A stretch of DNA of 64,000 nt from a virus. The first letter of the stretch is position 1. Each line of letters begins with the position of its first letter. The DNA lies in IMG/VR virus record IMGVR_UViG_3300044797_000308, positions 1 through 64,000 of that record; one strand, written 5' to 3'. Below the pieces are notes generated by a model, which saw only the letters and a program-made list of their open reading frames with translations, was not told where the DNA came from and did no database searches. The translations under genes were made by a program, and so were the position numbers. Below are positions 1-34,438 of this stretch, one piece after another.

Positions 1-2
1 AT

Positions 3-1489: not shown

Positions 1490-1548
1490 AACCAACTATT
1501 ATCATTGCATAAAACCATATAAAGAAAGCACTCCCAGAGGAATCCTAA

Positions 1549-2517: not shown

Positions 2518-3488
2518 TGGTCAAACAACCAAGACACCAATCGGTAGTCAGCAGACAATCTGATGCTGGTTATAGTGATGATCACTGGCTTCGAGAGTTT
2601 GAGAGCAAACTCCAAAAGACTAGTGTGCAGCCGCGTGGTGAATCTATCTACGATCAAATCAATAGCATTATGAACACCAAGTCCAAGTATCCTTCTGTAC
2701 AGGCAGCGGTGGATGATATGATGCAACGTAGTGGCTTGAATAGCTATCTAGATAACGTTAAAGAATCGCAAGAACAGATTTCTAGTGAAACATCTACTAA
2801 AACTGCCAACTCTTTAAAAAACGAAATTGATCAGTTAAAAGATCTTGCTAAGATTGGCGACTGGTTTGCATTTGGTAAATTAATGGCTAAAATAGATATG
2901 GCAGAGGGACAACCTCGTATCAATGGTGCCGAATCAATTCGAGTAATCAAATATTTTAAAGATCCTGAGCTTTCCTCGGTAAAAGTCCCTTTGGAGAAAT
3001 GGGAACTATATACTCGTGGTTATGGCGAAGAGCAACATTTGTCGCCAGAAGAACAGGAAAAAGACATAAGATTTACTCGTCAAATATTGGATAATATATT
3101 AAATAGATCTAAAACTGCTCAAACTGTAGAGCCTAAAAAATCAGAAGATCCTAGTGCCAACAAGACGCCACAAGTTATTCAAGATAAACCGAGCATTCTT
3201 CGTACCCTAGAAAATATTATTAAAGAAACTAGGGGTAATATGCCTATCTCGGCTATTATTGCTCGTTTGCAATCTTTGCATGCCAGAGATATTTCTGATG
3301 AAGCGGTCTGGGATGATGAGCGCTTGCTTCGTTTGATCAGCCAGATGAACCTGCAAGCCAAGAAAGATAACCCTAGCAGCTTTGAGAACTTCGATCATTT
3401 GGGTCAGGGCGATCATGCTACTTCTGCTGATGACATTGATGCGTCTAACACTGACGCTTTTAATGCTTTAATGCCCGCTAGAATTTAA
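2517..3488 (+). CDS. hypothetical helical protein upstream of terminase
   Basis: 323 residues, with the start at a TAATG coupling to the gene before it. The sequence is mostly predicted helical, polar and charged. It contains a possible coiled stretch near residues 80-125 and SKTAQTVEPKKS near residue 200. There are no transmembrane segments and no known catalytic motif. Together with the two genes upstream it forms a short run leading to terminase. A role in packaging or head assembly is inferred from neighbours only. The 80 bases after it up to the terminase start hold an AT-rich spacer with ACTGATATTTTC at about 3554-3565, resembling leaders of other + strand genes here. Confidence 0.55.
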   Translation: MVKQPRHQSVVSRQSDAGYSDDHWLREFESKLQKTSVQPRGESIYDQINSIMNTKSKYPSVQAAVDDMMQRSGLNSYLDNVKESQEQISSETSTKTANSLKNEIDQLKDLAKIGDWFAFGKLMAKIDMAEGQPRINGAESIRVIKYFKDPELSSVKVPLEKWELYTRGYGEEQHLSPEEQEKDIRFTRQILDNILNRSKTAQTVEPKKSEDPSANKTPQVIQDKPSILRTLENIIKETRGNMPISAIIARLQSLHARDISDEAVWDDERLLRLISQMNLQAKKDNPSSFENFDHLGQGDHATSADDIDASNTDAFNALMPARI

Positions 3489-3568
3489 CTGCTTTGCACT
3501 TACCTAATGGTTTTTAGCTTATTTTTGCGCATTATTGATAAGTATGGGAATATACTGATATTTTCAAT

Positions 3569-5455
3569 GTGTCCACTCTAAATATTGAAGATAAAGAACT
3601 GTTTTTGAAATTAAAGAAACAGTTGATGATGTATGATCCAGTCGCATTCTGCCAAGAATATTTAACATTGGAAGGAAAAGATTTTACTCTGATCGGCAAT
3701 GGATACAAACCGTTCAGTGATATTTATCGATACATTGGAATTAAAGCGTTGGAGAGAGATGCCAAACCCGTTATTATAGTCAAGGGTCGTCAGGTGGGAG
3801 CTACCACCATGGCTTCGGCTTTGGAAATGTATTTTATGGGATGTGGAATGTTTGGCGACGGTTTTAGATCGCCCATACGCATTATTCACGCCTTCCCACA
3901 ATTAGAACTAGCGGCAGCTTATTCTAAGACTAAACTCAATCAAATGATTTCTCAGGCTAAGATTCCTGATGGTAGCAAAGAGAGCAGGGGGGCTCGACCC
4001 AAATCTTATATGCAAATGCTATTGGATCAAAGTACGGCTACCAATGACTCCCTTCATTTTAAGCAGTTTCAAGGCGGAAACCATTTGTGGGTAGAGTCGA
4101 CTGGTATTGATGCTGACCGTATTATGGGTCGTACTGCTGATATTATCTTTTTTGATGAGGTACAGAAAACCACCGGTCTAGCCATTGGAAATGCTCTCAA
4201 AATTCTGACCAATGCTAAATACGGCCCCCCTACCAAAGGGGTCCAAATTTATTTTGGAACGCCTAGGCGCAAAGGTTCCGATTTTCATAAGATGTGGCAA
4301 ACATCTTCTCAGCAATACTACCACCTAGGTTGCGAAGGATGCAAAGAATATTTCCCGCTTTACACCCCCGATTCCAATGATTGGGAGTCAATTTGGATCC
4401 ATACTAAGATAGTTAAGTGCCCTAAGTGTGGTCATGAACAGGATAAATTATCCGCCCAAGAACGCGGCAAATGGGTCTCTCTGATCAATCCAGATGATCC
4501 AGATTGTAAGATGATTGGTTTCCATATCAATCAGCTTTATATGCCAATGTTTTCTCGTGAAGATTTAGAAAGTGAAAAACCGGGCAAGCACCCAATTAAT
4601 ACGGAAAGAGTTTATACCAACGAAGTTTTGGGAGAGTTTTTTCAAGGTGAATCTGGGCCAATCACTCCCGAACAAATTAGGGAACATTGTGCAGATATTG
4701 GAAGAAAGTTTGTACCAAGGATTATCCCCACTGCGGGGGTTAATCAGCAGCTTGTTGTATTGGGCATCGATTATGGTGCCCGTGCCGATCTAGAACAGCT
4801 GGCTAATCCCGATAGAATTAAGGCGCAAGGTCAATCTTACAGTACGGCCGTGGTTCTACAAACCAAGGGGGCTGGTGTTTTGTCAATTGAATTTTGTACC
4901 AAATTCAAGCGCAACGATCCAGAGAGTAAAAAGGGAATTATTGATCAATTGATGAGGCAATATAGCATACAGTTGGCAGTAGGAGATATTGGTTATTCTA
5001 ACGATTTTTCCTATACCCTTCATCAGTCTTATGGAGATAGATATTTAGTTTCTCGTGCACATAGTAAAATTAACGATCATATCAAGTTCAATGCTGATGC
5101 TTTCCCCAAAGAAATAACTTTTGAGAGGGATTATTATATTGGTGAGCTGTATGAGCAGATGAAAAAAGGGATGATTCGCTTTCCTTATGGGGAATATGAA
5201 AAAATTGCTTGGCTCATTGAACATTGTGCTAGTATGGAGATAAAACCATCTATTTCTAGAACAGGGGCCGATCCTAGCGTGCATTATGTCAAGGGCGGCA
5301 CCCCCAACGATGGTTTTATGGCTTTATTAAACGCTTATATTGCTTACAAGTTTCTTATTACCAGAGGCTTTACTAATAACAATCCGCTGCTACAAACCAC
5401 TAAAAATGCCAACAAACCCTTGGTGACATCTGGTTATTGTCCCAGAAAATTCTAA
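3569..5455 (+). CDS. terminase large subunit (DNA-packaging ATPase/nuclease)
   Basis: Motor protein that translocates phage DNA into proheads and cuts concatemers. The ATPase domain shows a Walker A-like GRQVGATT at residues 73-80 and a Walker B IIFFDEVQ with D196 and E197. Four cysteines (C255, C258, C284, C287) form a likely zinc ribbon between the ATPase and nuclease domains, as in GpA-type terminases. The nuclease domain shows candidate metal-binding aspartates: D401 in GIDYG, D473 in VGDIGYS and D581 in NDGFMALLNAY. At 628 residues the length suits the family. The start is uncertain: the frame opens at GTG 3569 without a good Shine-Dalgarno, and an internal Met (MMYDPVAF) near 3626 is an alternative. 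The portal gene follows. Confidence 0.95.
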   Translation: MSTLNIEDKELFLKLKKQLMMYDPVAFCQEYLTLEGKDFTLIGNGYKPFSDIYRYIGIKALERDAKPVIIVKGRQVGATTMASALEMYFMGCGMFGDGFRSPIRIIHAFPQLELAAAYSKTKLNQMISQAKIPDGSKESRGARPKSYMQMLLDQSTATNDSLHFKQFQGGNHLWVESTGIDADRIMGRTADIIFFDEVQKTTGLAIGNALKILTNAKYGPPTKGVQIYFGTPRRKGSDFHKMWQTSSQQYYHLGCEGCKEYFPLYTPDSNDWESIWIHTKIVKCPKCGHEQDKLSAQERGKWVSLINPDDPDCKMIGFHINQLYMPMFSREDLESEKPGKHPINTERVYTNEVLGEFFQGESGPITPEQIREHCADIGRKFVPRIIPTAGVNQQLVVLGIDYGARADLEQLANPDRIKAQGQSYSTAVVLQTKGAGVLSIEFCTKFKRNDPESKKGIIDQLMRQYSIQLAVGDIGYSNDFSYTLHQSYGDRYLVSRAHSKINDHIKFNADAFPKEITFERDYYIGELYEQMKKGMIRFPYGEYEKIAWLIEHCASMEIKPSISRTGADPSVHYVKGGTPNDGFMALLNAYIAYKFLITRGFTNNNPLLQTTKNANKPLVTSGYCPRKF

Positions 5456-5523
5456 ATATTAAGCTTTACTGATATATCATATTTAGTGTATTAGTAGAGG
5501 TATAGTGGAACAACTGAGGTTAT

Positions 5524-7410
5524 ATGGCTGGCATAAAAAAATCAGGATTGGGTGATAGTCCGTCCTTTTCAGCGAGATATTTACAAAATAGAACTACTAC
5601 ACCACATGTTAGTGCCATTATGGCTAATGGAATTTCAGAAGAAAGAAGAGTAATTCTTTCAGATGAAGTAGAACAAGGTAAGTTTCTAGATGGTACTGGT
5701 CCCACTTATAATCAAGCTCTCGCCCAAAATGGTGAAACTCCTGCGGGTCGCGTAGTTGCTTCCGCACATGCCGCGCCTTCTATTATGTCCAAGTACGCAC
5801 AAGTAGGCGCTGGAGGCGGAGGAATGTTTCGTGGCGTTCACGGAGACTCTGTCAAACAGACTCCGGAAGTATATTCGCCATTATGGTTAAATAGCAACTT
5901 AAACCTACCACGTGATCGTGCCACTATTAACGCTTGGTGTCGTAGCTTTTTTGCTTTGAATCCATTTGTTCATAATGCTATTAGTTTGCACAGCACCTAT
6001 CCTATTAGTAAATTAGCTATTAAGTGCCCCAACAAAGATATCGAAAAGTTTTTCGATGATATGATCGAGGAAATAGATCTAATGAATATCTGCGTGCAAA
6101 TTGCACAAGAATATTGGTTATTGGGTGAAGCGTTTGTGTACGCAGAGTTAGACGAGGGTAAAGGTAAATGGAGTCGTCTACACATTCAGAATCCAGATTT
6201 CATGATCGTCAAACGTACGGTAGTGGCTTCTGAGCCTATCATTATGTTGCGCCCTGATGAAAATCTCAAAAAGATTATTTTCTCCAATCGTCCCACCGAT
6301 ATTGAACAGCGCAAACAACTCAATCAACATATCATTGATTCGGTCAGACGTGGTGAGAATATTCCACTCGACAATTTCCATGTGTCTCATTTAGCTCGTA
6401 GAATTAGTCCTTATGAAATTAGGGGCACCGGCCTGCCAGTCTGCATTTTCCGTCAGTTGATGCTTTTCGATAAGCTTCGTGAATCTAAGTACGCCCAAGC
6501 CGATAATATGATCAATCCACTTACCGTAGTCAAGATCGGCTCCGCTGATTATAAGCCAACTTTTGCTGACTTGGAAGCCTGGAGAAGTGTCTTCGAGGAA
6601 GCACAGTACGATAAGGACTTCAAGATTTTTACTCATGAAGGCGTAGATGTTACTAGGGTGGGTTATGGTCAAGGTATCTTCGATATCTCGGGCGACATTA
6701 CTCAGTTAGTTAAGGAAATCTATGTTGGTTTGTTCGTTCCACAGGCCATGATGGATGGCGGTGCGGACACGACTTACGCTAATGCTGGTGTGGCTCTCGA
6801 CGTGTTAAGACAGCGTTATATGCAATTCCGTAATATGATGTCGCAATGGTTGAAGACCAAAGTTTTCGCCCCCATTTCTAAGATTCAGGGTTTTTACGAT
6901 TACTCGGGTGGTGAGAAGCAGCTTATCGTTCCAGAAATTGACTGGAATCATATGTCGTTGTTTGATGCAGGTGATTATATCAACACCCTAGTTACTTTGA
7001 CCCAAGGGACTGCCGATCAGAAGAGGGCCTCTTTGCATACTTTATATCGTTCCATGGGCCTAGAATTCGAGGATGAAACCAGAAAGATTCGTAAAGAAGC
7101 TATTCAGAACGCTATTGCTAAAAAAGAAGCGGCTGCTTTGGAAGCGTTAGATCTCAATTCACTTCGTGCTTTGGATGACGAAGATGAAATCCCAGAACCA
7201 CAAGGACAACCTGCACAAGAACAGGCGGTGCCAGGCGAGACTCCAGGTGGTGCCCCTCCAGGTGGCGGCCTCCCAGATTTAGGATTGCCAGGAGGGCCAC
7301 CACCCCCACCACCATCCGGAGGAGCAGGCGGACTTCCACCTCCTCCCCCACCAGCCGGAGAAGCAGGAGGAGCTGGCGGACCTCCCCCTCCCCCACCACC
7401 ACCAGGCTAA
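5524..7410 (+). CDS. portal protein with Pro/Gly-rich C-terminal tail
   Basis: Dodecameric head vertex channel through which DNA enters and leaves. It lies directly after terminase and has typical portal features: RATINAWCRSFFALNPFVHNAI near residues 137-159, LLGEAFVYAE near 200, a GTGLPVCIFRQLMLFDKLRESKYAQADN region, then FVPQAMMDGG near 400. About 540 residues form the body. The last 80 are very unusual for a portal: an acidic stretch followed by proline and glycine runs (PPPPPP, GGAGG), probably disordered and projecting from the crown or into the head. The ATG at 5524 follows a GAGGTTAT sequence. The upstream spacer contains ACTGATATATCATATT at 5468-5483, a motif also seen in other leaders. 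Confidence 0.92.
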   Translation: MAGIKKSGLGDSPSFSARYLQNRTTTPHVSAIMANGISEERRVILSDEVEQGKFLDGTGPTYNQALAQNGETPAGRVVASAHAAPSIMSKYAQVGAGGGGMFRGVHGDSVKQTPEVYSPLWLNSNLNLPRDRATINAWCRSFFALNPFVHNAISLHSTYPISKLAIKCPNKDIEKFFDDMIEEIDLMNICVQIAQEYWLLGEAFVYAELDEGKGKWSRLHIQNPDFMIVKRTVVASEPIIMLRPDENLKKIIFSNRPTDIEQRKQLNQHIIDSVRRGENIPLDNFHVSHLARRISPYEIRGTGLPVCIFRQLMLFDKLRESKYAQADNMINPLTVVKIGSADYKPTFADLEAWRSVFEEAQYDKDFKIFTHEGVDVTRVGYGQGIFDISGDITQLVKEIYVGLFVPQAMMDGGADTTYANAGVALDVLRQRYMQFRNMMSQWLKTKVFAPISKIQGFYDYSGGEKQLIVPEIDWNHMSLFDAGDYINTLVTLTQGTADQKRASLHTLYRSMGLEFEDETRKIRKEAIQNAIAKKEAAALEALDLNSLRALDDEDEIPEPQGQPAQEQAVPGETPGGAPPGGGLPDLGLPGGPPPPPPSGGAGGLPPPPPPAGEAGGAGGPPPPPPPPG

Positions 7411-7483
7411 TCCAAGGTGATATCCCACTACTTGTGAATAATCTCACATAGTTTTAGCTATTACGCTCAAGTAGAGGGTTTCC

Positions 7484-8716
7484 ATGGATAAAATTGCTCA
7501 AGAACGCGGTGTTCTCAATAAGTTGAGAGAAAAAGTCAATATTCCTGGGTCTGTCATTGAAGGTTTCTTCAAGCCAGAACTCGATAGAATTATGAATGAT
7601 CTCAGACAAACTGATGACAACATTCGATCAATTTTGACCGGTCAAAAAATTGGCAAGTCGGATGTTGATGTGGGCGGCAAGTCTGTCAAAGATTTGCTCA
7701 AGTCGGCTCGTAGCAATTTCAATCGTCGTGAATATATGATGGGAGTAGCCGATCTCGGACAATTCCACAAGAAACTGGCAGACGTCACTAAGTTTATTGG
7801 CGTGCTAGACATGAGCATCAATAGAATTCATCATGATTTTTTGTTTCAAAATCTAAAAGACGATCAGAGAGAAAATATTCAAGGGCTCAGAGAATATATG
7901 GGTAAGACTTCTGAAGTCCAAAGTGATGATTTGACCAAAGAAGCTGGCATTATGGATTTTTTCTATAACATTGGCACCAAGCGTGGCCGAGCCCTAGCTG
8001 TCTGGGAAAAGAAATATCCAAAGGTCGTTAAAGATTTAAGAGATGGTGGCAATCGTCTTCTCGACATGGCAGACTCTGCTTTGGCAAATATATTGGGGCT
8101 CCTAAAAGTGATGGCTGCTGCCCGCGCGACTCGTAAAGTAGATAGCTATGTAGAGGCGGCTAATAAAATCAAAAATGAGTACGCTAAATTTGATAATGGC
8201 GATAAGGGTTTTCGTGCCTACTACACTAGCGTTATCAAACCGTATTTGGATAGGCAAGATGAATTTGAAAGACAAGACGCGGCCAAAAATAAGCCGATAG
8301 AAGTGGCCACTCCAACTGGAACGGCACCCCCACCAGTTGTTGCCCCATCTTCTCCTACTCCTGCTCCCGGTGCCACTACCCCAGGTTTCAACTATGATCT
8401 GCCAATTCCAGCGTCACCCGACTCCCCTCCGGCACAACCTTCATTACCATTAGCGGGACCACCCGGAGCTTCTCCACCTTTCCCCACACCTCCTCCCGAA
8501 GAGGCCGCCCCTGATACGGAAAGAGAGCCCGTTGTTTTCCCACTTAATAAGCCGAAAACCTCTCATCAAAATTTTTACGAGTCTCTACAATCTTTGAGCG
8601 ACGAAAATCCTCATATCATAGCCAGATACATTGCCAAGTATGCCACTTCTATTGAGAAGTCAGATCCAGAAACAGCTATCGTGTTGTTCAACGTGATTAG
8701 AAAAATTAAGGGGTAA
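7484..8716 (+). CDS. hypothetical virion-module protein, helical body plus proline-rich linker
   Basis: 410 residues. The N-terminus MDKIAQERGVL matches the K-x-AQ motif found near the start of several other proteins in this window. Residues 1-255 look helical. Residues about 270-360 are a long Pro/Ala/Ser/Thr linker with repeated APTP-like elements. The last 50 residues form another small helical domain. It sits between portal and transglycosylase, so it is probably a head or internal virion protein. No enzyme motif is visible. The 73 bases before it contain an inverted repeat CTACTTG (7429-7435) / CAAGTAG (7469-7475), unproven as regulatory. Confidence 0.6.
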   Translation: MDKIAQERGVLNKLREKVNIPGSVIEGFFKPELDRIMNDLRQTDDNIRSILTGQKIGKSDVDVGGKSVKDLLKSARSNFNRREYMMGVADLGQFHKKLADVTKFIGVLDMSINRIHHDFLFQNLKDDQRENIQGLREYMGKTSEVQSDDLTKEAGIMDFFYNIGTKRGRALAVWEKKYPKVVKDLRDGGNRLLDMADSALANILGLLKVMAAARATRKVDSYVEAANKIKNEYAKFDNGDKGFRAYYTSVIKPYLDRQDEFERQDAAKNKPIEVATPTGTAPPPVVAPSSPTPAPGATTPGFNYDLPIPASPDSPPAQPSLPLAGPPGASPPFPTPPPEEAAPDTEREPVVFPLNKPKTSHQNFYESLQSLSDENPHIIARYIAKYATSIEKSDPETAIVLFNVIRKIKG

Positions 8717-8719
8717 AGT

Positions 8720-9829
8720 ATGCCAGTTGGCAATTTAGGTCCTAATTTTTATCCCAAACTCGTTGAAATGACTACCGCTTTGGGAATGAAACCGGAAGAC
8801 TTAATTTCCGTGATGACATCGGAGTCTGGTATGAACCCAGCGGCCTACAATCCAAGTGGTGCTTCGGGTCTCATCCAATTTATGCCCGGCACTCTAAATT
8901 CTGTTGGATTTCCGGGAACCCCAGATCAGTTTAGGCAACTTTCCGGAGAAGAGCAACTCCCCTGGATCCAAAAACTAATCAAAAATCGTATGCGATATCA
9001 AGGTGGTAAAGCTTTTACTTCTGGCGGACAATACTACGTAGCTAATTTATGGCCGGTGGCCCTTAAATTACCAGGTGTGGAGCAAGGCGATCCCGATACT
9101 GTTATACTTGAAAAATCACCACAAAGTGAAGGTGGGTATAGCAAAAAATATTTGGACATAGGCAGTAAAATAAAAGCTAGCGATGAAAGTGGGGCTTATA
9201 AAGCTAATCCACTCTTTGATAAAGAGAAGAAGGGGTACATCACCTTAGGAGATCTCAGTCGTCAAGTTAATCTCAATAAAAACACTCCCACTTATAAGCA
9301 AACTTTGGTATCCATGCAGCATGCCACTGGCTATCAACCAGGTACTGCGAATAAAGTTCCACCTTCTGCGGTGGCTCAAAACGATAACAGTTTGGAGGAA
9401 ATCTTGAATAAATACATTCAAATGTTATCATCAGCTTCTCCTATTTCTCGCAAGAGATTATACAAGAAGGTGCTGCCTAACCACAATATTTTAATTAAAA
9501 TTACTGCTCCCGACTATGCTAGTTCCGTGGAATTCTCTCGAGTGCTCTGTACAGCCTTAGATGAAGATTTGTTAGCCACTTCTTATCCACACACGGACGG
9601 CCAAGAAGTGGAAGTAGAATGTTGTATTGCCGGCCCATCGCAAGAGTGTTTTGCTGCGGTGGAACAAATGGCCCGAGCGTTAGCTGAAACTTTCAAAGAT
9701 GCCACCACTAAAATTGGTGGGATTACAGTAAAAACTAAATGCAGTATGGATAAAAAGTCATCTTATCAACCAATCAGCGTCAGAACTGCTGGTACTAACT
9801 ACAGGAAGTTCCTGCTCAAATTTGTCTAA
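8720..9829 (+). CDS. lytic transglycosylase domain protein (virion-associated)
   Basis: The N-terminal 150 residues match the SLT/goose-lysozyme-like fold: catalytic-type glutamate E35 in MTSESGMN, followed by PSGASGLIQFMPGTL, the usual glycine/glutamine signature. Such domains cleave peptidoglycan beta-1,4 bonds. In virions they open the cell wall during DNA entry. After a linker, residues 210-369 form a second unrecognised domain with several cysteines, ending in RTAGTNYRKFLLKFV. Position next to portal and other head genes, and absence of an obvious signal peptide, favour a virion role over a lysis endolysin. It starts three bases after the upstream stop. Confidence 0.85.
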   Translation: MPVGNLGPNFYPKLVEMTTALGMKPEDLISVMTSESGMNPAAYNPSGASGLIQFMPGTLNSVGFPGTPDQFRQLSGEEQLPWIQKLIKNRMRYQGGKAFTSGGQYYVANLWPVALKLPGVEQGDPDTVILEKSPQSEGGYSKKYLDIGSKIKASDESGAYKANPLFDKEKKGYITLGDLSRQVNLNKNTPTYKQTLVSMQHATGYQPGTANKVPPSAVAQNDNSLEEILNKYIQMLSSASPISRKRLYKKVLPNHNILIKITAPDYASSVEFSRVLCTALDEDLLATSYPHTDGQEVEVECCIAGPSQECFAAVEQMARALAETFKDATTKIGGITVKTKCSMDKKSSYQPISVRTAGTNYRKFLLKFV

Positions 9830-9838
9830 GGAAACACA

Positions 9839-10243
9839 ATGGTATCGGAACAACATCTTCTCAGCACTATCCAGCAGTTGCAAGGGTCCGGAAAAACCTT
9901 TGCCGAATTCTTAGCTGAAATCTTTAAAGATAAATTCATTGAGGTTTATGTGGGTGATGCTTACGAAGATGTTAGCACCGAACAAATATCAACTACATAC
10001 CCTGCTGTTTTTTGTGGAAAGGTCATAGCGGCCTATCGTGAATGTCTAATTCTTAACTGCGCGTTTGTGTCTCAAAATAAGCACTTGACGCTGGGTAATT
10101 ACATGTTCGTTAATGAAAGGGCTATCAGAGCTCTGAATGAAGTAGATGGCAATGGCACACTAGAAGATATGATGCTTCGTAGCAAAGAAACTTTGGATAT
10201 AAGACAAGCTTTTGATAAGAAACCCAATGATAAAAACAAATGA
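9839..10243 (+). CDS. hypothetical small protein
   Basis: 134 residues, preceded by an AAGGAAACACA ribosome-binding site. It is mixed alpha/beta in appearance. There are no transmembrane segments and no known motif. It ends in a lysine/asparagine-rich tail and overlaps the next gene by ATGA (10240-10243). Its place after the transglycosylase puts it in the head/internal-protein operon; a small connector or accessory protein is possible, but nothing in the sequence decides this. Confidence 0.6.
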   Translation: MVSEQHLLSTIQQLQGSGKTFAEFLAEIFKDKFIEVYVGDAYEDVSTEQISTTYPAVFCGKVIAAYRECLILNCAFVSQNKHLTLGNYMFVNERAIRALNEVDGNGTLEDMMLRSKETLDIRQAFDKKPNDKNK

Positions 10244-10458
10244 TCGACGTAAACGCTATCCTACAATTGGCTATCACTTATGAAAATAAGTGTTCACAAG
10301 AACTGGTAAAACTTGCTAAAATACGCAAGATGCCAGATGGCAGCTATCGTGTGCTTTCTCAGACGGGTAAAAATTTAGGAAGCTATAAGTCTCGTAAAGG
10401 GGCTGAGCGCCGATTGCGAATGATTGAAATGTTTAAACATATGAAAGAGAAAGAATGA
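10240..10458 (+). CDS. small basic protein with a GKxLGxY / RRLRxIEMFKH motif
   Basis: 72 residues. The C-terminal half contains MPDGSYRVLSQTGKNLGSYK followed by SRKGAERRLRMIEMFKHMKEKE. This is a compact beta-hairpin-plus-helix signature that I recognise as recurrent in small phage proteins but cannot assign a function to. The N-terminal half is a short helix. It overlaps both neighbours by ATGA: the preceding gene at 10240 and the endonuclease at 10455. Before that insertion, its stop would have overlapped the start of the gene now at 11198 in the same way. Confidence 0.65.
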   Translation: MIDVNAILQLAITYENKCSQELVKLAKIRKMPDGSYRVLSQTGKNLGSYKSRKGAERRLRMIEMFKHMKEKE

Positions 10459-11201
10459 TGTTTTATATTTATGCCATTCAAAATATGATAAATAATAAAA
10501 TATATATTGGTCAAACAAAGAATCCAGAATATAGGTGGTATTGTCATAAAAATAATTCTTTTAATGAAAAAACGGCTTGCTATAATACTTATATTGCCAG
10601 AGCCATTAGAAAGTATGGCGTTGATAGTTTTCAGTTTGATATTATTGAAAATTATGATAATATAAATGATTGTAATAATGCCGAAGAGTTTTGGATTAAA
10701 TTTCTCTTTTCACATAATTCTTCAATAGGATACAATATAAAATTGGGAGGAAACAATCATAGTATGAGCGAAGCAACTAAACAAAAGATTGGGGTGGCAA
10801 ATAGTATTTCTTTAAAGGGAAAAAAGCTAACTGATAAGCATAAGTATAACATATCATTATCTTTAAAAGGTAAAGATGTTTCACAAGAACATAGAGATAA
10901 TTTATCAGTGGTTTTGTTGGGTAATCAAAATTGTTTAGGTAGAGAGGTATCTCCAGAAACAAGAAATAAAATATCGGCTGCTAACAAAGGAAATAAAAGT
11001 GCTTTGGGAGTTAAGCATAATTTAAATACTAGAACTAATATGAGTCACTCTCGACTTGTCCTAAATGTTAGTGATGTTGAAAATATTATTAAAGATTTTG
11101 ATAGCGGTATAAAAAAGAAGGATTTAGCTATTAAATATGGAGTTAGTAAAGATACTATTACAAGAGTTTTTAATGCAACTTATTTTAGTAGGGTTAAATG
11201 A
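10455..11201 (+). CDS. GIY-YIG homing endonuclease
   Basis: 248 residues. The N-terminal GIY-YIG nuclease core is visible as FYIYAIQN..NKIYIGQTKNPEYRW, with YGVDSFQFDIIE after it. The middle has several NUMOD3-type repeats (SEATKQKIG, SLKGKKLTDKHKYNIS, PETRNKISAANKG). The C-terminus has a helix-turn-helix, KKDLAIKYGVSKDTITRV. This is the classic modular layout of free-standing phage GIY-YIG enzymes that spread by cutting endonuclease-free relatives. It is AT-rich compared with its neighbours. Both ends are ATGA overlaps (10455-10458 and 11198-11201), so removing 743 bp between the two ATGA copies would leave the flanking genes coupled exactly as other genes here are. Confidence 0.93.
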   Translation: MMFYIYAIQNMINNKIYIGQTKNPEYRWYCHKNNSFNEKTACYNTYIARAIRKYGVDSFQFDIIENYDNINDCNNAEEFWIKFLFSHNSSIGYNIKLGGNNHSMSEATKQKIGVANSISLKGKKLTDKHKYNISLSLKGKDVSQEHRDNLSVVLLGNQNCLGREVSPETRNKISAANKGNKSALGVKHNLNTRTNMSHSRLVLNVSDVENIIKDFDSGIKKKDLAIKYGVSKDTITRVFNATYFSRVK

Positions 11202-27834: not shown

Positions 27835-28770
27835 ATGGCATCAGATATCAACGGAACAGTCGAGGGAATTCAAGGTAATGCAGTAGAGGCTGGAACTCTT
27901 GGTTCCACCGAAGACGGTTATGTGCTAACTTGGGTAAATGCTAATAGCGAATGGCAACCATTACCAGTCACAGTTCCAACATCCGGTTTGACAACTGATT
28001 ATTTCACTTCCAGCGGCACTTGGACTTGCCCCGCTGGCATTACTAATGTATTGGTAATCGGTGCTGGGGGAGGCGGTGGTGGTGCTGGAGGTGGGAGTCA
28101 AGCTAATGGTACTGGCGCTGGAGGTGGCGGAGGTGGATCACTTCAACAAACATCATATATGTTGGTTACTCCGGGAAACGAATACACTATAACTATTGGT
28201 GCTGGTGGTTCGGGTGGATCTGGTGGTAGTCATTTTGGAAATAGTGGAGATGATGGTACTGCAACTACTATTGTTTATAGTTCGACAACTTTATTTTATG
28301 CTCTTGGCGGTGGTGGGGCTGGTGGCAATGCAGATGGGGGCGAAAGCATAATATTTGTTTGTGGTACTTCTTATGCCAATAATCAATCGCAAAATAATGG
28401 ATGGGTTGGGTATTATAGCGGTTCTGTAGTAACCTTACCATCTATGCCAGGATTTGGTGGAAATGGTATAGAATCAAATGGAACTGGATCACAGTCTGGA
28501 ATGCAAAATTATGTGGGTGGATTTTCTGGTGGCTCTGCTGGCGCTAATGCTACGGGAGTGAGTGCTGGTGGAGGGGGCGGGGGTGGTGCTGGGCCACAAG
28601 GAGCTGGTGGAAATGGTGGTAACGGTTCCACAGGTGGTGCTGGTAGTGCCGGCTCAAATGGCGGAAGCAATACTGCTGCTGGTGGTGGTGGAGGAGGATC
28701 TGGTAATGATAACGGCAATGGTGGAGCTGGTGGTAACGGTGGTTCAGGCTATCTTTACATTATCTACTAA
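27835..28770 (+). CDS. glycine-rich fibre/adhesin-type protein
   Basis: 311 residues. After a short N-terminal part comes FTSSGTWTCPAGITNVLVIG, the usual entry to phage glycine-rich domains. Long Gly runs (GAGGGGGGAGGG and similar) alternate with Asn/Ser/Thr loops to the C-terminus. Such domains in phage adhesins can fold into polyglycine-II helix bundles whose loops bind receptors; that is known for T-even gp38-type tips and only inferred here. A strong ribosome site, TTAGGGAGGGAAAT, precedes the ATG. Its last 27 bases are shared with the convergent endonuclease gene. The opposite-strand Pro-rich frame is an artefact of glycine codons. Confidence 0.8.
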   Translation: MASDINGTVEGIQGNAVEAGTLGSTEDGYVLTWVNANSEWQPLPVTVPTSGLTTDYFTSSGTWTCPAGITNVLVIGAGGGGGGAGGGSQANGTGAGGGGGGSLQQTSYMLVTPGNEYTITIGAGGSGGSGGSHFGNSGDDGTATTIVYSSTTLFYALGGGGAGGNADGGESIIFVCGTSYANNQSQNNGWVGYYSGSVVTLPSMPGFGGNGIESNGTGSQSGMQNYVGGFSGGSAGANATGVSAGGGGGGGAGPQGAGGNGGNGSTGGAGSAGSNGGSNTAAGGGGGGSGNDNGNGGAGGNGGSGYLYIIY

Positions 28771-29913
28771 TTTGCTTTTCTGAAAGTCTTGAACTCGTCT
28801 TATCCAAGCTTGAAACTCGGGTAGGGCGAGTTTGCTTTTAGTATGATTGCAGTAATAGCAACACGGCACCACATTGTTTTTGTTATGCGGTTGTGATCGA
28901 TCTATACGATCAATGCCGTTGTAAATATATTCTCCGTTTTGCTTGGCTTTATCGGAGGATTTTTTATCAGTTTTGGCACGATTGAAAGTATTATTTGGCT
29001 TGCCATTGCAGTAAAAACAGCTCATTTGAGAAATAGAATAATATTCTTCTACTGACATATCAGTATCGTTTTTGTGATTGTAAAAAACGCACTTAATTGA
29101 TGTGGCTAATGAGCCATTTTCTGGAAACAGTATTTGAGGTATAATGAGCGGATGAAAGTCAGTAATAGTTAGTCGTAATATCCATTCTAAAAAATCTTTT
29201 TGTGTTCTATCACTTTTAGCCCTATTACAAATTGGGCAACATGCTACTACATTATCTATGGTATGTGATTTGGTGTTATCTACACGATCCATACCGTTGT
29301 AAATAAATAATCCCTCTGCCTCTGATTTTTTAGAACTATAAGTTGATGTTGCGGCAAAAAAGTTGTATTTAGTATTTGGTTCTATTCCACAATAAAAACA
29401 ATTTTGTTGTGAAACATTCATAAATTGCTCGAATGAAATAGTATTTTCATCACGATATAAATAAGTATTTTGCCAAACTCTACGAGCAGAGGCGATATGA
29501 GGTTCGTTTTTTCTTCTGCCAGCAATAAGTTTATCAGATTTTGTTTTGCTAATTTCTATTTTGAGACATCCGCAAGATTTGGTATTATCATTTGCTAATT
29601 TATAGGATGAAACCTCTACATATTCACCACAATCACATAAGCACGACCATTTGTTATCCTTGTATATAATAGTAGTTAGGCGCCCGAATTTTTGACCAGC
29701 CGATAAGGTAGTTCTGCCTTCTTTTACTATACATCCACACGATTGAACAGTTCCCCTATTGAGATGAACTGTGGCTACAATTTTTATTTTTCCACAATTA
29801 CATAAACACTCCCATGCTCCATATTCTCGTTTTTTCCCAACAATATTAGGGGCTTTTTTAATGACGGTAAGGCGACCGAATGTTTGTCCGATCAAATCGT
29901 ATTTTATAGACAT
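28744..29913 (-). CDS. double-HNH homing endonuclease with two zinc-ribbon repeats
   Basis: 389 residues on the minus strand. Residues 1-120 hold two copies of a zinc-ribbon unit: GQTFGRLTVIKK..WECLCNCG..SCGC and GQKFGRLTTIIY..WSCLCDCG..SCGC. Two HNH-type domains follow. The first has CFYCG..YNGMDRVDN..CCPICNRAKSD, the second has CFYCN..YNGIDRIDR..CCYYCNHTKSK. Single HNH domains are usual, so the tandem is unusual. The stop lies inside the end of the convergent adhesin gene (27-base overlap). The start at 29913 faces the capsid gene leader. It is free-standing, in no intron or intein. Confidence 0.88.
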   Translation of the reverse strand: MSIKYDLIGQTFGRLTVIKKAPNIVGKKREYGAWECLCNCGKIKIVATVHLNRGTVQSCGCIVKEGRTTLSAGQKFGRLTTIIYKDNKWSCLCDCGEYVEVSSYKLANDNTKSCGCLKIEISKTKSDKLIAGRRKNEPHIASARRVWQNTYLYRDENTISFEQFMNVSQQNCFYCGIEPNTKYNFFAATSTYSSKKSEAEGLFIYNGMDRVDNTKSHTIDNVVACCPICNRAKSDRTQKDFLEWILRLTITDFHPLIIPQILFPENGSLATSIKCVFYNHKNDTDMSVEEYYSISQMSCFYCNGKPNNTFNRAKTDKKSSDKAKQNGEYIYNGIDRIDRSQPHNKNNVVPCCYYCNHTKSKLALPEFQAWIRRVQDFQKSKLVDNVKIA

Positions 29914-30070: not shown

Positions 30071-31084
30071 ATGAATATGTTCAACGATAAAGGACAAGTA
30101 AATGGCTCTTCTTTTAGAGACACTTTACAGCAACTAGTTCGCTACGCTGCAATTCTTGAAGAGAATGTCCCAGCAAACCAAGGTCTCGCTGGTCAACCTG
30201 CCTTGTCTGACGACAAGAGAGATGAGCTTATCACCAGAGCAATTCAAACACAAGATGGTAAAATCGCTTTGGCCCAAGCAATGGCCAATCCGATTCGCAG
30301 AAATCTCGATTACCATGGTATCGCTCGTCGTGCCCTAGTAGTTGATCCATTGCCACAAGGTGCAATGCCAACTTACGATAGAGATATCGATGTTGCCGCT
30401 GTTGTTATTTCTAGCAACGGTACTGGCCCAGAGTCCAGAGTATTCGGTGACAGAGTAGTTGTTCCTGAATTCGAAGTCTACGCTAACCCAACCGTTAGAA
30501 TCGCAGAAGTTAAGCGTCGTAGATTCAACGTTATCGACAGAGCTGTCCAGAAGGCTCGTCAAGAAATCATGGCCCAAGAAGATGCCAACATCTTCGCAGC
30601 CTTGGATGCCGCAGCTTCTGTGGAAAACACTCTCACTGACATCGCAGATGCCGGTCTTCTCAAGAGAGACTTGGTCGAGATCAAGCAACAAATTGATCGT
30701 TGGGACTTAGTGACTACTAAGTACTTCATGAACATCAATGAGTTCACTGATATCTTGAAGTGGGGCTCCGGTGGTGGACAAGGCGTGGGTGGTGGTGATT
30801 TCGATCCAGTAACCATGCGTGAAGTTCTACAAACTGGTTTGTATGCTCATATCTGGGGAACTGACATTATGGTCAGCAAGATTGTGCCTCCCGGTACGAT
30901 CTACGGTGTGGCAGACCCTGAGTTCGTAGGAGTCATGCCAATTAGACAAGACATCGAAGTACTTCCTGCTGATGAACCAAAGCAACTCAAGTTGGGTTGG
31001 GTTATTTCTGAGATTATCGGAATTGCTATAGTGAACCCTCGCGGATGCGCTGCGGGCCGTAAATCAGTAATCATCGGTGCATAA
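30071..31084 (+). CDS. major capsid protein (HK97-fold expected)
   Basis: 337 residues, preceded by GTGGAGATAACAT at ideal spacing. The sequence has the look of a phage coat protein: a helical, polar N-terminus, a core with RVFGDRVVVPEFEVYANP and TVRIAEVKRRRFNVIDRAVQ, a Gly-rich loop (GSGGGQGVGGGDF) and a C-terminal DIEVLPADEPKQL..GWVISEIIGIAIVNPRG strand-rich end. C-ending codon bias is strong. An immediate, strong terminator follows, as expected for a single abundant product. It is 25 kb from the portal gene. The HK97 fold is inferred from family knowledge. Confidence 0.85.
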   Translation: MNMFNDKGQVNGSSFRDTLQQLVRYAAILEENVPANQGLAGQPALSDDKRDELITRAIQTQDGKIALAQAMANPIRRNLDYHGIARRALVVDPLPQGAMPTYDRDIDVAAVVISSNGTGPESRVFGDRVVVPEFEVYANPTVRIAEVKRRRFNVIDRAVQKARQEIMAQEDANIFAALDAAASVENTLTDIADAGLLKRDLVEIKQQIDRWDLVTTKYFMNINEFTDILKWGSGGGQGVGGGDFDPVTMREVLQTGLYAHIWGTDIMVSKIVPPGTIYGVADPEFVGVMPIRQDIEVLPADEPKQLKLGWVISEIIGIAIVNPRGCAAGRKSVIIGA

Positions 31085-31113
31085 TAAGTCGTAACTAAAT
31101 AAAGATACAGAAG

Positions 31114-31140
31114 AAGCTCATAGGAAACTATGAGCTTTTT
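31114..31140 (+). terminator. strong rho-independent terminator after the capsid gene
   Basis: AAGCTCATAG (31114-31123) pairs perfectly with CTATGAGCTT (31128-31137) around a GAAA tetraloop, followed by T's to 31140. It begins 30 bases after the capsid stop. Because the ATG at 31130 lies inside this stem, it is unlikely to be the start of the following gene. Confidence 0.88.
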
Positions 31141-31177
31141 CGCTTTTGTAGGGTGCCACTTTTTTGACATATCCAGT

Positions 31178-31747
31178 ATGGATCCCAAAAAACTCCGCAA
31201 ACAGTATATGCAGGTGGTGCCCAAGTTGAAGCACGCCATGCAATATGTGCAATCGCAATTATCTGATTTGCCACCTTCCGATTTTGAGTTGCAAACCAAC
31301 ATCAAGCCCTACCCCAGCGTCAAACGCAAGATGGAGGCCGATCGTGTCAAGGATCCAGCAGAACTATCGGACTTGGTGAGGGGTCGTCTCTTTTTCTCCC
31401 CGCAATTTCAACACGAGGATGTGCTGGACATTCTGCATCAATTATTTGGCAAGAAGATTGCTAAAATTGATAAGCATATGGATCGTTCGACAGAACACGG
31501 CCTGGAATACCACGGCATTGTCCATCTTGATTTAGATTGCGATGGAGTGCATTTTGAGTTGCAACTGATGCCGCAAGAGTTCAAGCCATTCAAGGAGTTC
31601 TTGCATCAAATTTATGACAAGTTTCGCAACCCCAAATCTTTGGACAAACTATCCGATAAGCAAAAGACATTCTTGCGCAAAACTCATAATAATCTATATA
31701 AAAAGATCAACCAACAAGCCCATACTAATAGAGCAAGCGATCTCTGA
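31178..31747 (+). CDS. RelA/SpoT-like nucleotidyltransferase-domain protein
   Basis: 189 residues from ATG 31178; the frame opens at 31130 but that ATG is within the terminator stem. The middle resembles the RelA/SpoT synthetase fold: PYPSVKRKMEADR, then ELSDLVRGRLFF with the expected aspartate, then EYHGIVHLDL..GVHFELQLMP, matching the conserved H and E-x-Q region. Single-domain members make (p)ppGpp-like alarmones, or, as toxSAS enzymes, pyrophosphorylate the CCA end of tRNA. No hydrolase domain is present. It has no good Shine-Dalgarno and follows a terminator, so expression is probably separate from capsid. It overlaps convergently with the CCA-adding enzyme by 23 bases. The fold call is by eye. 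Confidence 0.6.
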   Translation: MDPKKLRKQYMQVVPKLKHAMQYVQSQLSDLPPSDFELQTNIKPYPSVKRKMEADRVKDPAELSDLVRGRLFFSPQFQHEDVLDILHQLFGKKIAKIDKHMDRSTEHGLEYHGIVHLDLDCDGVHFELQLMPQEFKPFKEFLHQIYDKFRNPKSLDKLSDKQKTFLRKTHNNLYKKINQQAHTNRASDL

Positions 31748-32960
31748 TAAACTGAATAAGTTTTCCTTTACTATTTTGCTTATGATTGCGTAAGATTTCG
31801 GCATAACAAGCGTCCAAAGCTTTTTTGATTTTGGGGCCCGGTGCCATTCCAATAGCTAACAGATCATCTCCATTGATTTCCATTTCTCTACGAGCATATA
31901 CCACTTCCTCTTGGTGGATCTCCAACCATTCTTGGATGGGCTGGCCCATGGCCTCGCACAACTTTATAAATTGTTCCAAGGTAGAGGGGCAGTCGTCTAT
32001 GGATCGGTTCTTGATAATGCTCATAATGGACTTGTAGGGTTCGGAACCGACCTTCCGCTTGGCGTGTAGGTATCGGCCAAACAACTCTTGCAGCAACATA
32101 ATTTTCTTGATCTCTCGACCGGAAAACTTCAAGTTATTCAATTCTTGCTCCACCATGATCATTGGGTGATGAATATACAGACAAGCTATCCTAGTTTCTA
32201 ACTCTCCCGACCAAGGAAAGGCTCCTGCTGAAGGATGGTAATTCAATATGGGAGAAGCTATTTTGAGTGCTCCCGAAGAAGACAAGATGCGCAAGCCTAT
32301 ATCTGGGTTGCTGGCCATCAAAGTTTTGCATAATTCATCACGCATGCGTTCTTTAGAAACTTTTTGGAGCGTTTCTAGGCTGAGAGTCATACCCCTGAAA
32401 GTATCTGGATCGATGACATAGTTGAAACGAGCTGCAAAGCGGGCCACTCGCATAATACGCAATCCGTCTTCTTGAAATCTGGCGGTAGCATTCCCTACCG
32501 TTTTGATCAAGCCAGTCTGGAGATCATCCATACCGTGAAAGGGATCGAAAATACGCTCCGTCATAGGATTGTAGGCTATGGCATTGATGGTCAAGTCACG
32601 GCGAGCTAAATCTTGTTCTACATTTGCCACAAACAAAACAGTATCCGGCCTGCGACCGTCTGAATATTCTCCTTCAATACGGAAGGTAGTCACCTCAAAC
32701 TGATTTTCTGTGCCTTCTCCCATACAGACGGTGACCGTTCCGTGTTGCAAGCCAGTGGGAATGGTTTTGGGGAATAGTTGGATAACAGTTTCAGGATGGG
32801 CATCGGAAGTGATATCCCAATCCTTGGGTTTCTGCCCCAACAGAAGGTCTCGCACACAACCGCCCACAATAAAAGCCTGGTATCCGTTCTTATGGAGGGT
32901 GTGGCAGACCTCTATGGCAGAGGGGTGGATTAGGTGTGGGGAGATGGCTAATTTTTGCAT
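31725..32960 (-). CDS. cca: CCA-adding tRNA nucleotidyltransferase (class II)
   Basis: 411 residues on the minus strand. The nucleotidyltransferase head shows GGCVRDLLLG (residues 33-42), catalytic DWD (47-49), FEVTTFR, the RRD motif (120-122) with LTINAIAY, and RFQEDGLRIMRVARFAARF. These are classic class II CCA-enzyme/poly(A)-polymerase signatures. The enzyme rebuilds the CCA 3' end of tRNAs from CTP and ATP; a poly(A)-polymerase specificity cannot be excluded by eye. Length matches bacterial enzymes, so it looks complete. No tRNA genes occur in this window, so it may serve phage tRNAs elsewhere or repair damaged host tRNAs. It faces the RelA/SpoT-like gene tail to tail. Confidence 0.93.
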   Translation of the reverse strand: MQKLAISPHLIHPSAIEVCHTLHKNGYQAFIVGGCVRDLLLGQKPKDWDITSDAHPETVIQLFPKTIPTGLQHGTVTVCMGEGTENQFEVTTFRIEGEYSDGRRPDTVLFVANVEQDLARRDLTINAIAYNPMTERIFDPFHGMDDLQTGLIKTVGNATARFQEDGLRIMRVARFAARFNYVIDPDTFRGMTLSLETLQKVSKERMRDELCKTLMASNPDIGLRILSSSGALKIASPILNYHPSAGAFPWSGELETRIACLYIHHPMIMVEQELNNLKFSGREIKKIMLLQELFGRYLHAKRKVGSEPYKSIMSIIKNRSIDDCPSTLEQFIKLCEAMGQPIQEWLEIHQEEVVYARREMEINGDDLLAIGMAPGPKIKKALDACYAEILRNHKQNSKGKLIQFIRDRLLY

Positions 32961-33059: not shown

Positions 33060-33767
33060 ATGTTATTAGAAGCTTCCGAGCTGTACAATTTGATTTCTAG
33101 GGGTTCCGAGCATGTTCCTGCTAGGAAACAGGCTAGATTACTAAGAAAAGTAGCCCTCTCTTCTTTGATCCCCAATTCAGGATTTAAGAAAGTAGCTTTT
33201 GACACTCGTTTTATTGATCAAGAGACAGAATTTAATCCACGTAGAGGTTTACAGAATTATAATCGTAGTGAAGCATTTATTACAGAAGCTATCTCTCAAA
33301 AAGTAAAAAGTTTTGCTAAGCTGCGTAAGGTGCTCAATGAGTTGAAAGAAACTTATGGCAAAGAGCATGAGTGGCAAGACAGTAACGCTCGTGTGTTACT
33401 TTCCACCATAGATAATGGTTTGCGCACTATTGCCCAAGATGAAAATTTTTCTACCAATCAACCAGGGGTGGGCAGTTTTGATTATATCGAAGAGTTATTG
33501 AATGTTAGATATCGTTTGACTTTTGATAATCTTACTAAAATGGGAGAAACCGACCTCAAAAGAGTTATATTAGCTAAGGATGAGGAATTGATCCGTAAGG
33601 ATGTCAAGCAAGCCTTGGAGATTACCAAACACGATGTAGCTACAAAAGGCTATGACACCTTGATGGAAAAATTATTCACTATTAGTGCCCCTACGGAGGG
33701 ACAGCGCACGGTAGAGCGTAGCATAACGATTGTCATTAGAGATAGTTTTCCCGACCAGAAAGAGTAA
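33060..33767 (+). CDS. hypothetical virion-module protein
   Basis: 235 residues, start preceded by AGGAATATA. Basic N-terminal 45 residues (KQARLLRKVALSSL), helical middle, and a strand-rich C-terminal 60 residues ending in ITIVIRDSF, which looks like a small domain that could contact other subunits. No enzyme motif. Followed after 35 bases by an HNH endonuclease, then by tail-type proteins, so a neck or tail-completion role is possible; this is inference from position. Confidence 0.55.
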   Translation: MLLEASELYNLISRGSEHVPARKQARLLRKVALSSLIPNSGFKKVAFDTRFIDQETEFNPRRGLQNYNRSEAFITEAISQKVKSFAKLRKVLNELKETYGKEHEWQDSNARVLLSTIDNGLRTIAQDENFSTNQPGVGSFDYIEELLNVRYRLTFDNLTKMGETDLKRVILAKDEELIRKDVKQALEITKHDVATKGYDTLMEKLFTISAPTEGQRTVERSITIVIRDSFPDQKE

Positions 33768-33802: not shown

Positions 33803-34438
33803 ATGGGAATGAAATTTTGTAAAAAATGCGGGATAATAAAGGACATAACAGAATTTTATAGAAGCTCGAAAAAACGTGATGGACATGCTTCTGCCTGCAA
33901 AAAATGTCAAAATGCGGTAAATAAAGCGTATAAAATAAAGAATGAAGAAAAAATTATGACTTATCAAGAAAATTATAGAAAAGAACATAAGGAAAAGATG
34001 AGTTCTTATTTTAAAGAGCGCTACGAGGCAACGAGAGACGAACAATTGGAATATAGAAAACAGCATTATGCTAGCAACAAAGAGCAATATGCTAAATCGG
34101 CTAAAAATTATTATATCAGTAATAAAGAGACAATACTAAATAGTGTTAAAGCGTGGGCCAAAATAATAAAAAATAAAAGAAATGAGTATAAGAGACGTAG
34201 AAGGGCGTTAAAACGTAATTCTATTGTTGAAAATTTTTCATTAGAAGAGGTGTTTAATAAATATGGTAATCAATGTTTTTATTGTAAGATGAAAAATTTT
34301 GAGCACCTAGATCATTTTGTTCCATTATCTAAGGGTGGCGCCCACACATTGGAAAATGTCAGGCCGTCGTGTGCAGAGTGTAATATGAAAAAACATACAC
34401 TTATGCCAGATGAGTTTTATTTAAGATACGGAAAGTAA
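33803..34438 (+). CDS. HNH homing endonuclease
   Basis: 211 residues. An N-terminal zinc knuckle (CKKCGIIKDITEFY, then CKKCQN) is followed by a long Lys/Tyr/Asn-rich helical linker and a C-terminal HNH core: CFYCK, HLDHFVPLSKGG, TLENVRPSCAECN. Architecture is shared with the genes at the left edge and at 48255, though the HNH core is of a different subtype (CxxC pairs flanking the active site). AT-rich. Its stop is only 3 bases before the next ATG. Start could also be ATG 33809. Self-mobile element; cleavage site unknown. Confidence 0.9.
   Translation: MGMKFCKKCGIIKDITEFYRSSKKRDGHASACKKCQNAVNKAYKIKNEEKIMTYQENYRKEHKEKMSSYFKERYEATRDEQLEYRKQHYASNKEQYAKSAKNYYISNKETILNSVKAWAKIIKNKRNEYKRRRRALKRNSIVENFSLEEVFNKYGNQCFYCKMKNFEHLDHFVPLSKGGAHTLENVRPSCAECNMKKHTLMPDEFYLRYGK

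What the first reader, a model, noticed from the sequence alone, without database searches (positions are those of the whole stretch)
31114..32960. RelA/SpoT-like gene facing a CCA-adding enzyme gene
The + strand gene resembles a single-domain RelA/SpoT synthetase. The - strand gene is a clear CCA nucleotidyltransferase. They overlap tail to tail by 23 bases, behind the capsid terminator, in a phage region with no tRNA. Some toxSAS RelA/SpoT-like toxins pyrophosphorylate the CCA end of tRNA, and a CCA enzyme rebuilds such ends, so the pair could be a phage tRNA-3'-end control module: one blocks host translation or signals starvation, the other restores tRNAs. Alternatively the first is a decoy or counter to host alarmone defence. 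I know of no described phage system of this pairing.
Basis: partly seen in the sequence, partly recalled or inferred. Interest (0 to 1): 0.78.

Follow-up and report, generated by a model that had tools for sequence, protein, structure and literature searches.

The report
RelA-like gene beside CCA-repair gene, jumbo phages
A giant phage carries, right behind its capsid gene, a small enzyme gene of the RelA/SpoT (starvation-signal) kind that overlaps a gene for repairing tRNA ends; both are real and under selection, but the two come and go independently in relatives, so they look like neighbours in a cargo hotspot rather than one machine.

Summary
ORF 31178-31747(+) folds as a RelA/SpoT synthetase domain (AlphaFold pLDDT 88.9; Foldseek best hits RelQ, RelP). 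ORF 31725-32960(-) passes NCBIfam's CCA-enzyme cut-off. They overlap tail to tail by 23 bases. The rel-like gene is conserved (dN/dS about 0.1). It keeps the catalytic Asp/Glu, the donor Lys/Ser and a Tyr in the acceptor-site loop, but lacks two donor-site arginines shared by RelQ, PhRel and FaRel2. It belongs to a small uncharacterised phage family (PHROG 37685 side), also present in Sinorhizobium and Desulfovibrio phages. "No tRNA" is a fragment artefact: 8 of 8 relatives over 190 kb carry 1-65 tRNAs. About 97% of tRNAs examined encode their own CCA, so the phage CCA enzyme most likely repairs damaged ends. The obligate-module idea is not supported. In a capsid-anchored survey of 48 loci, 12 have both genes, 4 rel only, 19 CCA only, 13 neither (Fisher p=0.35). 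Rel-CCA distances correlate no better than rel-capsid distances, and one rel sits elsewhere. Best reading: rel is a cargo pyrophosphotransferase in a hypervariable site, acceptor (nucleotide or tRNA 3' end) unknown; the CCA enzyme is a separate tRNA-repair gene.

The parts
30071..31084 (+). major head (capsid) protein gene, left border of the variable site; 88-100% identical across the family
   Evidence: PHROG 2522 E 2e-78
31110..31141 (+). intrinsic-terminator-like hairpin behind the capsid gene; overlaps the spurious upstream start of the 205-aa ORF
31158..31177 (+). short element directly 5' of rel (ACTTTTTTGACATATCCAGT here; often TTTTCTGGCATAnnnAT in relatives), kept although the DNA further upstream differs; no Shine-Dalgarno seen, so possibly its own promoter and a (near-)leaderless start (inference)
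31178..31747 (+). rel-like gene, 189 aa, RelA/SpoT-fold pyrophosphotransferase; residues K43, S47, K51, D65, R68, G69, Y111, G113, E127, Q129
31725..31747 (.). tail-to-tail overlap of the two coding sequences (23 bases; 4 bases in most relatives)
31725..32960 (-). CCA tRNA nucleotidyltransferase (411 aa), opposite in strand to the flanking capsid and 33060-33767 genes
   Evidence: dN/dS below 0.12
33060..33767 (+). conserved gene of unknown function ('next'), right border of the variable site

Best explanation
The + strand gene encodes a standalone, probably active pyrophosphotransferase of the RelA/SpoT superfamily, from a small phage-specific family. It is cargo in a hypervariable slot between the major capsid gene and a conserved downstream gene of tRNA-rich jumbo phages, with its own 5' element. 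It most likely moves pyrophosphate from ATP to a 3'-OH: more likely of a purine nucleotide (an alarmone-type signal that slows or redirects host metabolism late in infection), less likely of a tRNA 3' end. The convergent CCA gene is an independent, more widespread resident of the same slot. It most likely repairs the CCA ends of phage and host tRNAs damaged during infection, because phage tRNA genes already encode CCA. Shown here: fold, conserved catalytic residues, purifying selection, the adjacency and its statistics, tRNA richness, encoded CCA. Inferred: catalytic activity, acceptor, timing, repair role, host effect.
For: Fold: AlphaFold and Foldseek. Across phage clades about 20% identical, the invariant or nearly invariant residues K43, S47, K51, D65, Y111, E127, Q129 fall at FaRel2 K66, S70, K74, D90, Y128, E145, Q147 (FaRel2 roles from PMC11782079). 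dN/dS 0.09-0.16 for rel, so not a decaying relic in the window lineage. Hypervariable slot: HNH genes, RelE-like/antitoxin-like pair, collagen-like and unknown genes alternate with rel between the same borders; L001 has an identical rel protein but different upstream cargo. Rel 5' element kept across different upstream contexts, and zero-mismatch copies in seven records lie only at rel starts. Independence of rel and CCA. 223 of 230 tRNAs in seven relatives encode CCA; ARAGORN still calls all tRNAs when CCA is masked.
Against: Equivalents of two donor-site arginines (FaRel2 R64, R77) are missing, so ATP binding is remodelled and activity is not certain. The acceptor-site loop is the least confident part of the model (residues 102-104 pLDDT below 50), and Y111 is Ser in L018. 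No direct evidence of expression or activity. Rel is adjacent to CCA in 12 of 16 rel-bearing intervals, which could still reflect weak functional coupling.
Confidence: 0.6

Rival explanations
1. tRNA 3'-end control module: rel pyrophosphorylates the CCA end of host tRNAs and blocks translation; the CCA enzyme, with phage tRNAs, restores a usable pool for the phage.
For: Conserved adjacency in 12 loci. Basic protein, pI mostly 8.4-9.4 against 6.6 for RelQ, with an invariant N-terminal KKLRK, while FaRel2 binds tRNA through N-terminal K28/R29 (PMC11559606). CCA enzyme not needed for tRNA maturation. Sinorhizobium phages carry a CCA enzyme about 3 kb and a peptidyl-tRNA hydrolase about 1 kb from their rel, and Desulfovibrio phage 7757 also has a CCA enzyme.
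Against: Rel and CCA presence independent; no excess co-divergence; rel without CCA at four loci and elsewhere in L126; relative G021 has 21 tRNAs but no CCA enzyme found. FaRel2/PhRel donor arginines absent. A CCA enzyme is not known to remove a 3'-pyrophosphate; the known reversal is by SAH hydrolases.
Confidence: 0.15
2. Counter-defence decoy: rel is an inactive or weak SYNTH domain that titrates capsid, antitoxin or alarmone sensors of host toxSAS defence such as CapRel, which is triggered by major capsid protein.
For: Sits directly behind the major capsid gene in most rel-bearing loci; CapRel is activated by phage major capsid protein (PMC9712102); two donor-site arginines are missing.
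Against: Catalytic Asp/Glu, Lys, Ser and Gln are conserved across clades only 20% identical, unexpected for a dead decoy; in L126 rel lies about 5 kb from the capsid gene; CapRel's pseudo-zinc-finger sensor part is absent.
Confidence: 0.1
3. Rel is a cargo gene with no host-directed role, kept for a phage-internal step such as modifying phage RNA ends or late regulation, or for competition with other phages.
For: Hypervariable slot with varied cargo; losses and decay (frameshift in L029; C-terminal remnant in L076) show it is dispensable.
Against: Strong purifying selection where present.
Confidence: 0.15

Closest known systems
RelA/SpoT-family proteins of Sinorhizobium phages phiN3/phiM12 and a homologue in Desulfovibrio phage 7757 (PHROG 37685)
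   Same: Same fold and same residues K-P..S...K, DxxRG, Y.G, DG...E.Q; best annotated viral structure match (phiN3, TM 0.69); tRNA-carrying phages with a CCA enzyme.
   Different: Only 20-21% identical; longer N-terminus; phiN3 rel is not convergent with the CCA gene; unrelated context; function untested as far as found.
Small alarmone synthetases RelQ (YjbM) and RelP (YwaC)
   Same: Fold; catalytic Asp and Glu, donor Lys/Ser/Lys, Gln.
   Different: Lacks the R-x-K and K-x2-R donor arginines and the compact GYxSxH loop; basic rather than near-neutral; no oligomer evidence.
tRNA-modifying toxSAS (FaRel2, PhRel, CapRel)
   Same: Single SYNTH domain; basic N-terminus; CapRel among Foldseek hits (TM 0.60).
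   Different: PhRel keeps R-x-K...K-x2-R and GYRAVH, rel does not; no antitoxin or fused sensor.
RelA/SpoT domains of phage polyvalent proteins (PMC5512222)
   Same: Phage-borne RelA/SpoT NTase proposed to trigger an alarmone-like response; over-1000-aa viral hits.
   Different: Rel here is standalone, not part of a multidomain injected protein.
CCA-adding enzymes of jumbo phages (RNA-repair set, PMC7824862)
   Same: Same enzyme class, proposed tRNA 3'-end restoration.
   Different: Here located in the capsid region, convergent with a rel-like gene.

Membership tests
RelA/SpoT synthetase superfamily | SYNTH fold | tested here: met
   AlphaFold pLDDT 88.9; Foldseek PDB E 3e-7, 49 hits at E <= 0.001, SAS/Rel/Tas1/CapRel throughout
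RelA/SpoT synthetase superfamily | catalytic Asp and Glu (FaRel2 D90, E145) | tested here: met
   D65 and E127 invariant in 15 sequences of three phage clades
RelA/SpoT synthetase superfamily | Pfam PF04607 gathering score | tested here: not met
   22.7 of 27 bits; sequence too diverged, the fold test carries the assignment
Small alarmone synthetase RelP/RelQ | donor-site arginines (R-x-K and K-x2-R) and GYxSxH loop | tested here: not met
   N/G/S at the first position, variable at the second; Y-x-G loop of different spacing
Small alarmone synthetase RelP/RelQ | (p)ppGpp synthesis | not testable with these tools
   needs enzyme assay
tRNA-modifying toxSAS | donor-site set R64, K66, S70, K74, R77 | tested here: not met
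   K, S, K kept; R64 and R77 equivalents absent; PhRel keeps them
tRNA-modifying toxSAS | N-terminal basic residues that bind tRNA (FaRel2 K28, R29) | tested here: inconclusive
   invariant KKLRK near the N-terminus; no structural superposition possible
tRNA-modifying toxSAS | cognate antitoxin or fused antitoxin domain | tested here: not met
   no antitoxin-like partner seen next to rel in the loci read; the CCA gene is absent from 4 of 16 rel-bearing intervals
tRNA-modifying toxSAS | tRNA 3'-end pyrophosphorylation and toxicity | not testable with these tools
   needs biochemistry
CCA tRNA nucleotidyltransferase (NF009814) | curated score and PolyA_pol head, RNA-binding and C-terminal domains | tested here: met
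   298.9 against 290 bits; PF01743, PF12627, PF13735
rel-CCA functional module | non-random co-occurrence | tested here: not met
   12/4/19/13, Fisher p=0.35; Mantel r no higher than for flanking genes

The most novel reading that the evidence does not exclude
A phage-encoded tRNA 3'-end pyrophosphokinase of a new RelA/SpoT subfamily shuts down host translation late in infection, while the phage's tRNA set and its own CCA enzyme keep a usable tRNA pool, giving a two-part takeover of the tRNA 3' end.
Probability: 0.12. Interest if true: 0.75.

Novelty: new variant of a known kind. Interest (0 to 1): 0.42.

Why it matters
Standalone RelA/SpoT enzymes in virulent-type phages are barely studied; known biology concerns bacterial SAS, toxSAS defence and multidomain phage proteins. 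A conserved phage family with a remodelled donor site could reveal a new pyrophosphate acceptor. Finding CCA enzymes in phages whose tRNA genes already encode CCA points to a repair role, hence to something that damages tRNA 3' ends during infection. The capsid-adjacent slot with swapping cargo is a good place to look for other accessory or counter-defence genes.

Tried and rejected
Obligate rel-CCA pair or toxin-antitoxin: rejected on the capsid-anchored 2x2 table and distance correlations. 'Phage without tRNAs': rejected. CCA enzyme needed to mature phage tRNAs: not supported, 223/230 encode CCA, with a masking control. Artefact or pseudogene: rejected for the window by dN/dS, although L029 has a frameshift and L076 keeps only a C-terminal remnant. 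Bacterial relatives: two genome-contig scans found none; the scans are pattern-based and can miss distant relatives. Other copies of the L126-type rel: none beyond itself. Rel 5' element as a genome-wide phage promoter: not supported, zero-mismatch copies only at rel starts and few 1-mismatch copies. PADLOC and NCBIfam give no name to the window rel. Literature: no paper found that describes the pairing; the library lacks most subscription journals.

Full report
Observation. The + strand gene is 31178-31747: the ORF caller extends it to 31130, but that start lies in the capsid terminator hairpin 31110-31141, and all family members start MDxKKLRK. The - strand gene 31725-32960 passes the NCBIfam CCA cut-off (298.9 against 290 bits). 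They overlap by 23 bases; in relatives the overlap is mostly 4 bases, 18 in L018, and a 3-4 base gap in two.

What the + strand protein is. Pfam RelA_SpoT is below its cut-off (22.7 against 27 bits) and single-sequence PDB search finds nothing; the family profile finds only YwaC/RelP at E 0.018. The AlphaFold model from six homologues is good (pLDDT 88.9, pTM 0.82). Foldseek returns RelQ/SAS1 (E 3e-7), RelP (TM 0.68), exported SAS (0.63), CapRel (0.60), Tas1 and long Rel; among viral proteins, the RelA/SpoT protein of Sinorhizobium phage phiN3 (TM 0.69) and many large polyvalent proteins. PHROG 37685, unnamed, matches the window protein at 1.2e-7 and the Desulfovibrio phage homologue at 1e-41.

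Active site. Aligned with Desulfovibrio phage 7757 and phiN3 homologues, about 20% identical, the invariant residues are K43, K51, D65, R68, G69, G113, G123, E127, Q129 and R150, with S47, Y111 and H143 nearly so. By order, spacing and secondary structure, K43, S47, K51, D65, Y111, E127, Q129 correspond to FaRel2 K66, S70, K74, D90, Y128, E145, Q147, whose roles are given in PMC11782079. FaRel2 R64 and R77, present in RelQ and in PhRel of phage Phrann, have no equivalent; an invariant DxxRG replaces DxxGxR. The mapping is by sequence and predicted secondary structure, not superposition. So the enzyme is probably active but with a remodelled donor site, and it is not a member of the described SAS or toxSAS groups by motif.

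Selection and decay. Pairwise dN/dS is 0.09-0.16 for rel and below 0.12 for the CCA gene in unsaturated pairs. Rel is frameshifted in L029, and only a C-terminal remnant is left in L076.

The phage. G000 is a 69.8 kb viral record. Relatives sharing an 88-100% identical capsid protein reach 190-480 kb. The eight relatives over 190 kb searched with RF00005 carry 16, 65, 56, 55, 33, 1, 53 and 12 tRNA matches, so 'no tRNA' describes a fragment. In seven of them, 223 of 230 ARAGORN tRNAs end in an encoded CCA; masking the CCA did not lose a single call in 75 tRNAs. The phage CCA enzyme is therefore not needed to make these tRNAs and most likely repairs ends, as proposed for jumbo-phage CCA enzymes (PMC7824862). 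Whether the tRNAs of the window's own phage encode CCA is not known.

Is the pair a unit? Scored on loci found by the capsid gene (the 80 best of 283), keeping only intervals complete from capsid to the next conserved gene and removing duplicates: 12 have both, 4 rel only, 19 CCA only, 13 neither (odds ratio 2.05, Fisher p=0.35; restricted to capsid identity of at least 92%: 12/3/17/6, p=1.0). These counts are not corrected for shared ancestry. Distance correlations: rel-CCA r=0.45, rel-capsid 0.45, rel-next 0.45. The interval holds other cargo in other phages: HNH genes, a RelE-like plus antitoxin-like pair, collagen-like proteins, unknowns. L001 has an identical rel protein but an HNH and a RelE-like gene upstream. 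In L126 rel lies about 5 kb downstream of the capsid, next to a patatin-like ORF. A short element just 5' of the rel ATG, often TTTTCTGGCATAnnnATATGG, is kept although the preceding DNA changes; zero-mismatch copies in seven records lie only at rel starts. Rel thus looks like a gene that travels with its own 5' signal. That it is a promoter, or gives a leaderless message, is inference.

Distant echo. Sinorhizobium phages phiN3 and phiM12 have a CCA enzyme about 3 kb from their rel-family gene and a peptidyl-tRNA hydrolase about 1 kb beyond it. Desulfovibrio phage 7757 has a CCA enzyme about 25 kb away. A further relative, G021, has 21 tRNAs but no CCA enzyme found in a possibly partial record. 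All carry tRNAs. This is suggestive of a tRNA connection, but few independent lineages are involved and the base rate in large phages was not measured; at least 487 of 50,697 phage records match this CCA enzyme.

Mechanism. Most likely a nucleotide-directed pyrophosphotransferase, perhaps 45%; tRNA 3'-end-directed 30%; other or inactive 25%. These splits are judgement. For tRNA: basic protein (pI mostly 8.4-9.4, lowest 7.1, against 6.6 for RelQ), invariant KKLRK near the N-terminus as FaRel2 uses N-terminal K28/R29 (PMC11559606), and the tRNA-rich setting. For a nucleotide: best fold matches are RelQ and RelP, and the donor arginines of tRNA toxSAS are missing. A CCA enzyme is not known to me to undo 3'-pyrophosphorylation; the known reversal is by SAH hydrolases.

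Novelty. RelA/SpoT domains in phages are known, both annotated (phiM12) and in polyvalent proteins (PMC5512222). This family, its altered donor motif and its capsid-side slot appear undescribed in the library searched. The pairing claim is weakened, the enzyme claim strengthened.

Noticed in passing
window 28744-29913 (-) and 33803-34438 (+); L001 6771-7496 (-); L006 9828-10445 (+): HNH-type homing-endonuclease-like genes crowd around the capsid-CCA interval and differ between close relatives (read from the sequence, not domain-scanned).
   Followed up: partly
L001 7345-7668 (-); L062 +1009..+1545 after the capsid end (-): RelE-like small toxin gene (with a 64-aa antitoxin-like ORF in L062) in the same capsid-adjacent slot; no PHROG hit for the L001 protein.
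   Followed up: partly
G004, G005, G006, G007, G012, G013, G016, G017, G018: A second, ~257-aa protein with a PolyA_pol head domain, ~30 kb from the CCA gene in the records that have both (alone in G017, whose slot lacks CCA); not detected in the window record.
   Followed up: no
L043/L042 region of G006, L051-L052 of G012: ARAGORN calls a tRNA-Stop in G006 and a 'tRNA-Pyl' in G012: possible suppressor tRNAs in these jumbo phages.
   Followed up: no
L030 (phiN3) 1-5806; L032 (phiM12) 4170-10950: CCA enzyme, RelA/SpoT-family gene and peptidyl-tRNA hydrolase lie within about 7 kb in Sinorhizobium phages.
   Followed up: partly
L031 5881-6555: Desulfovibrio phage rel-family protein weakly matches PADLOC defence candidate PDC-S33 (E 2e-4).
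   Followed up: no
L029 2836-3370; L076 2670-2855: Decayed rel copies: a frameshift in L029, a 61-aa ORF with the rel C-terminus in L076.
   Followed up: yes
L126 12074-12625: Rel copy away from the CCA gene, next to a patatin-like ORF in a 327 kb relative.
   Followed up: partly
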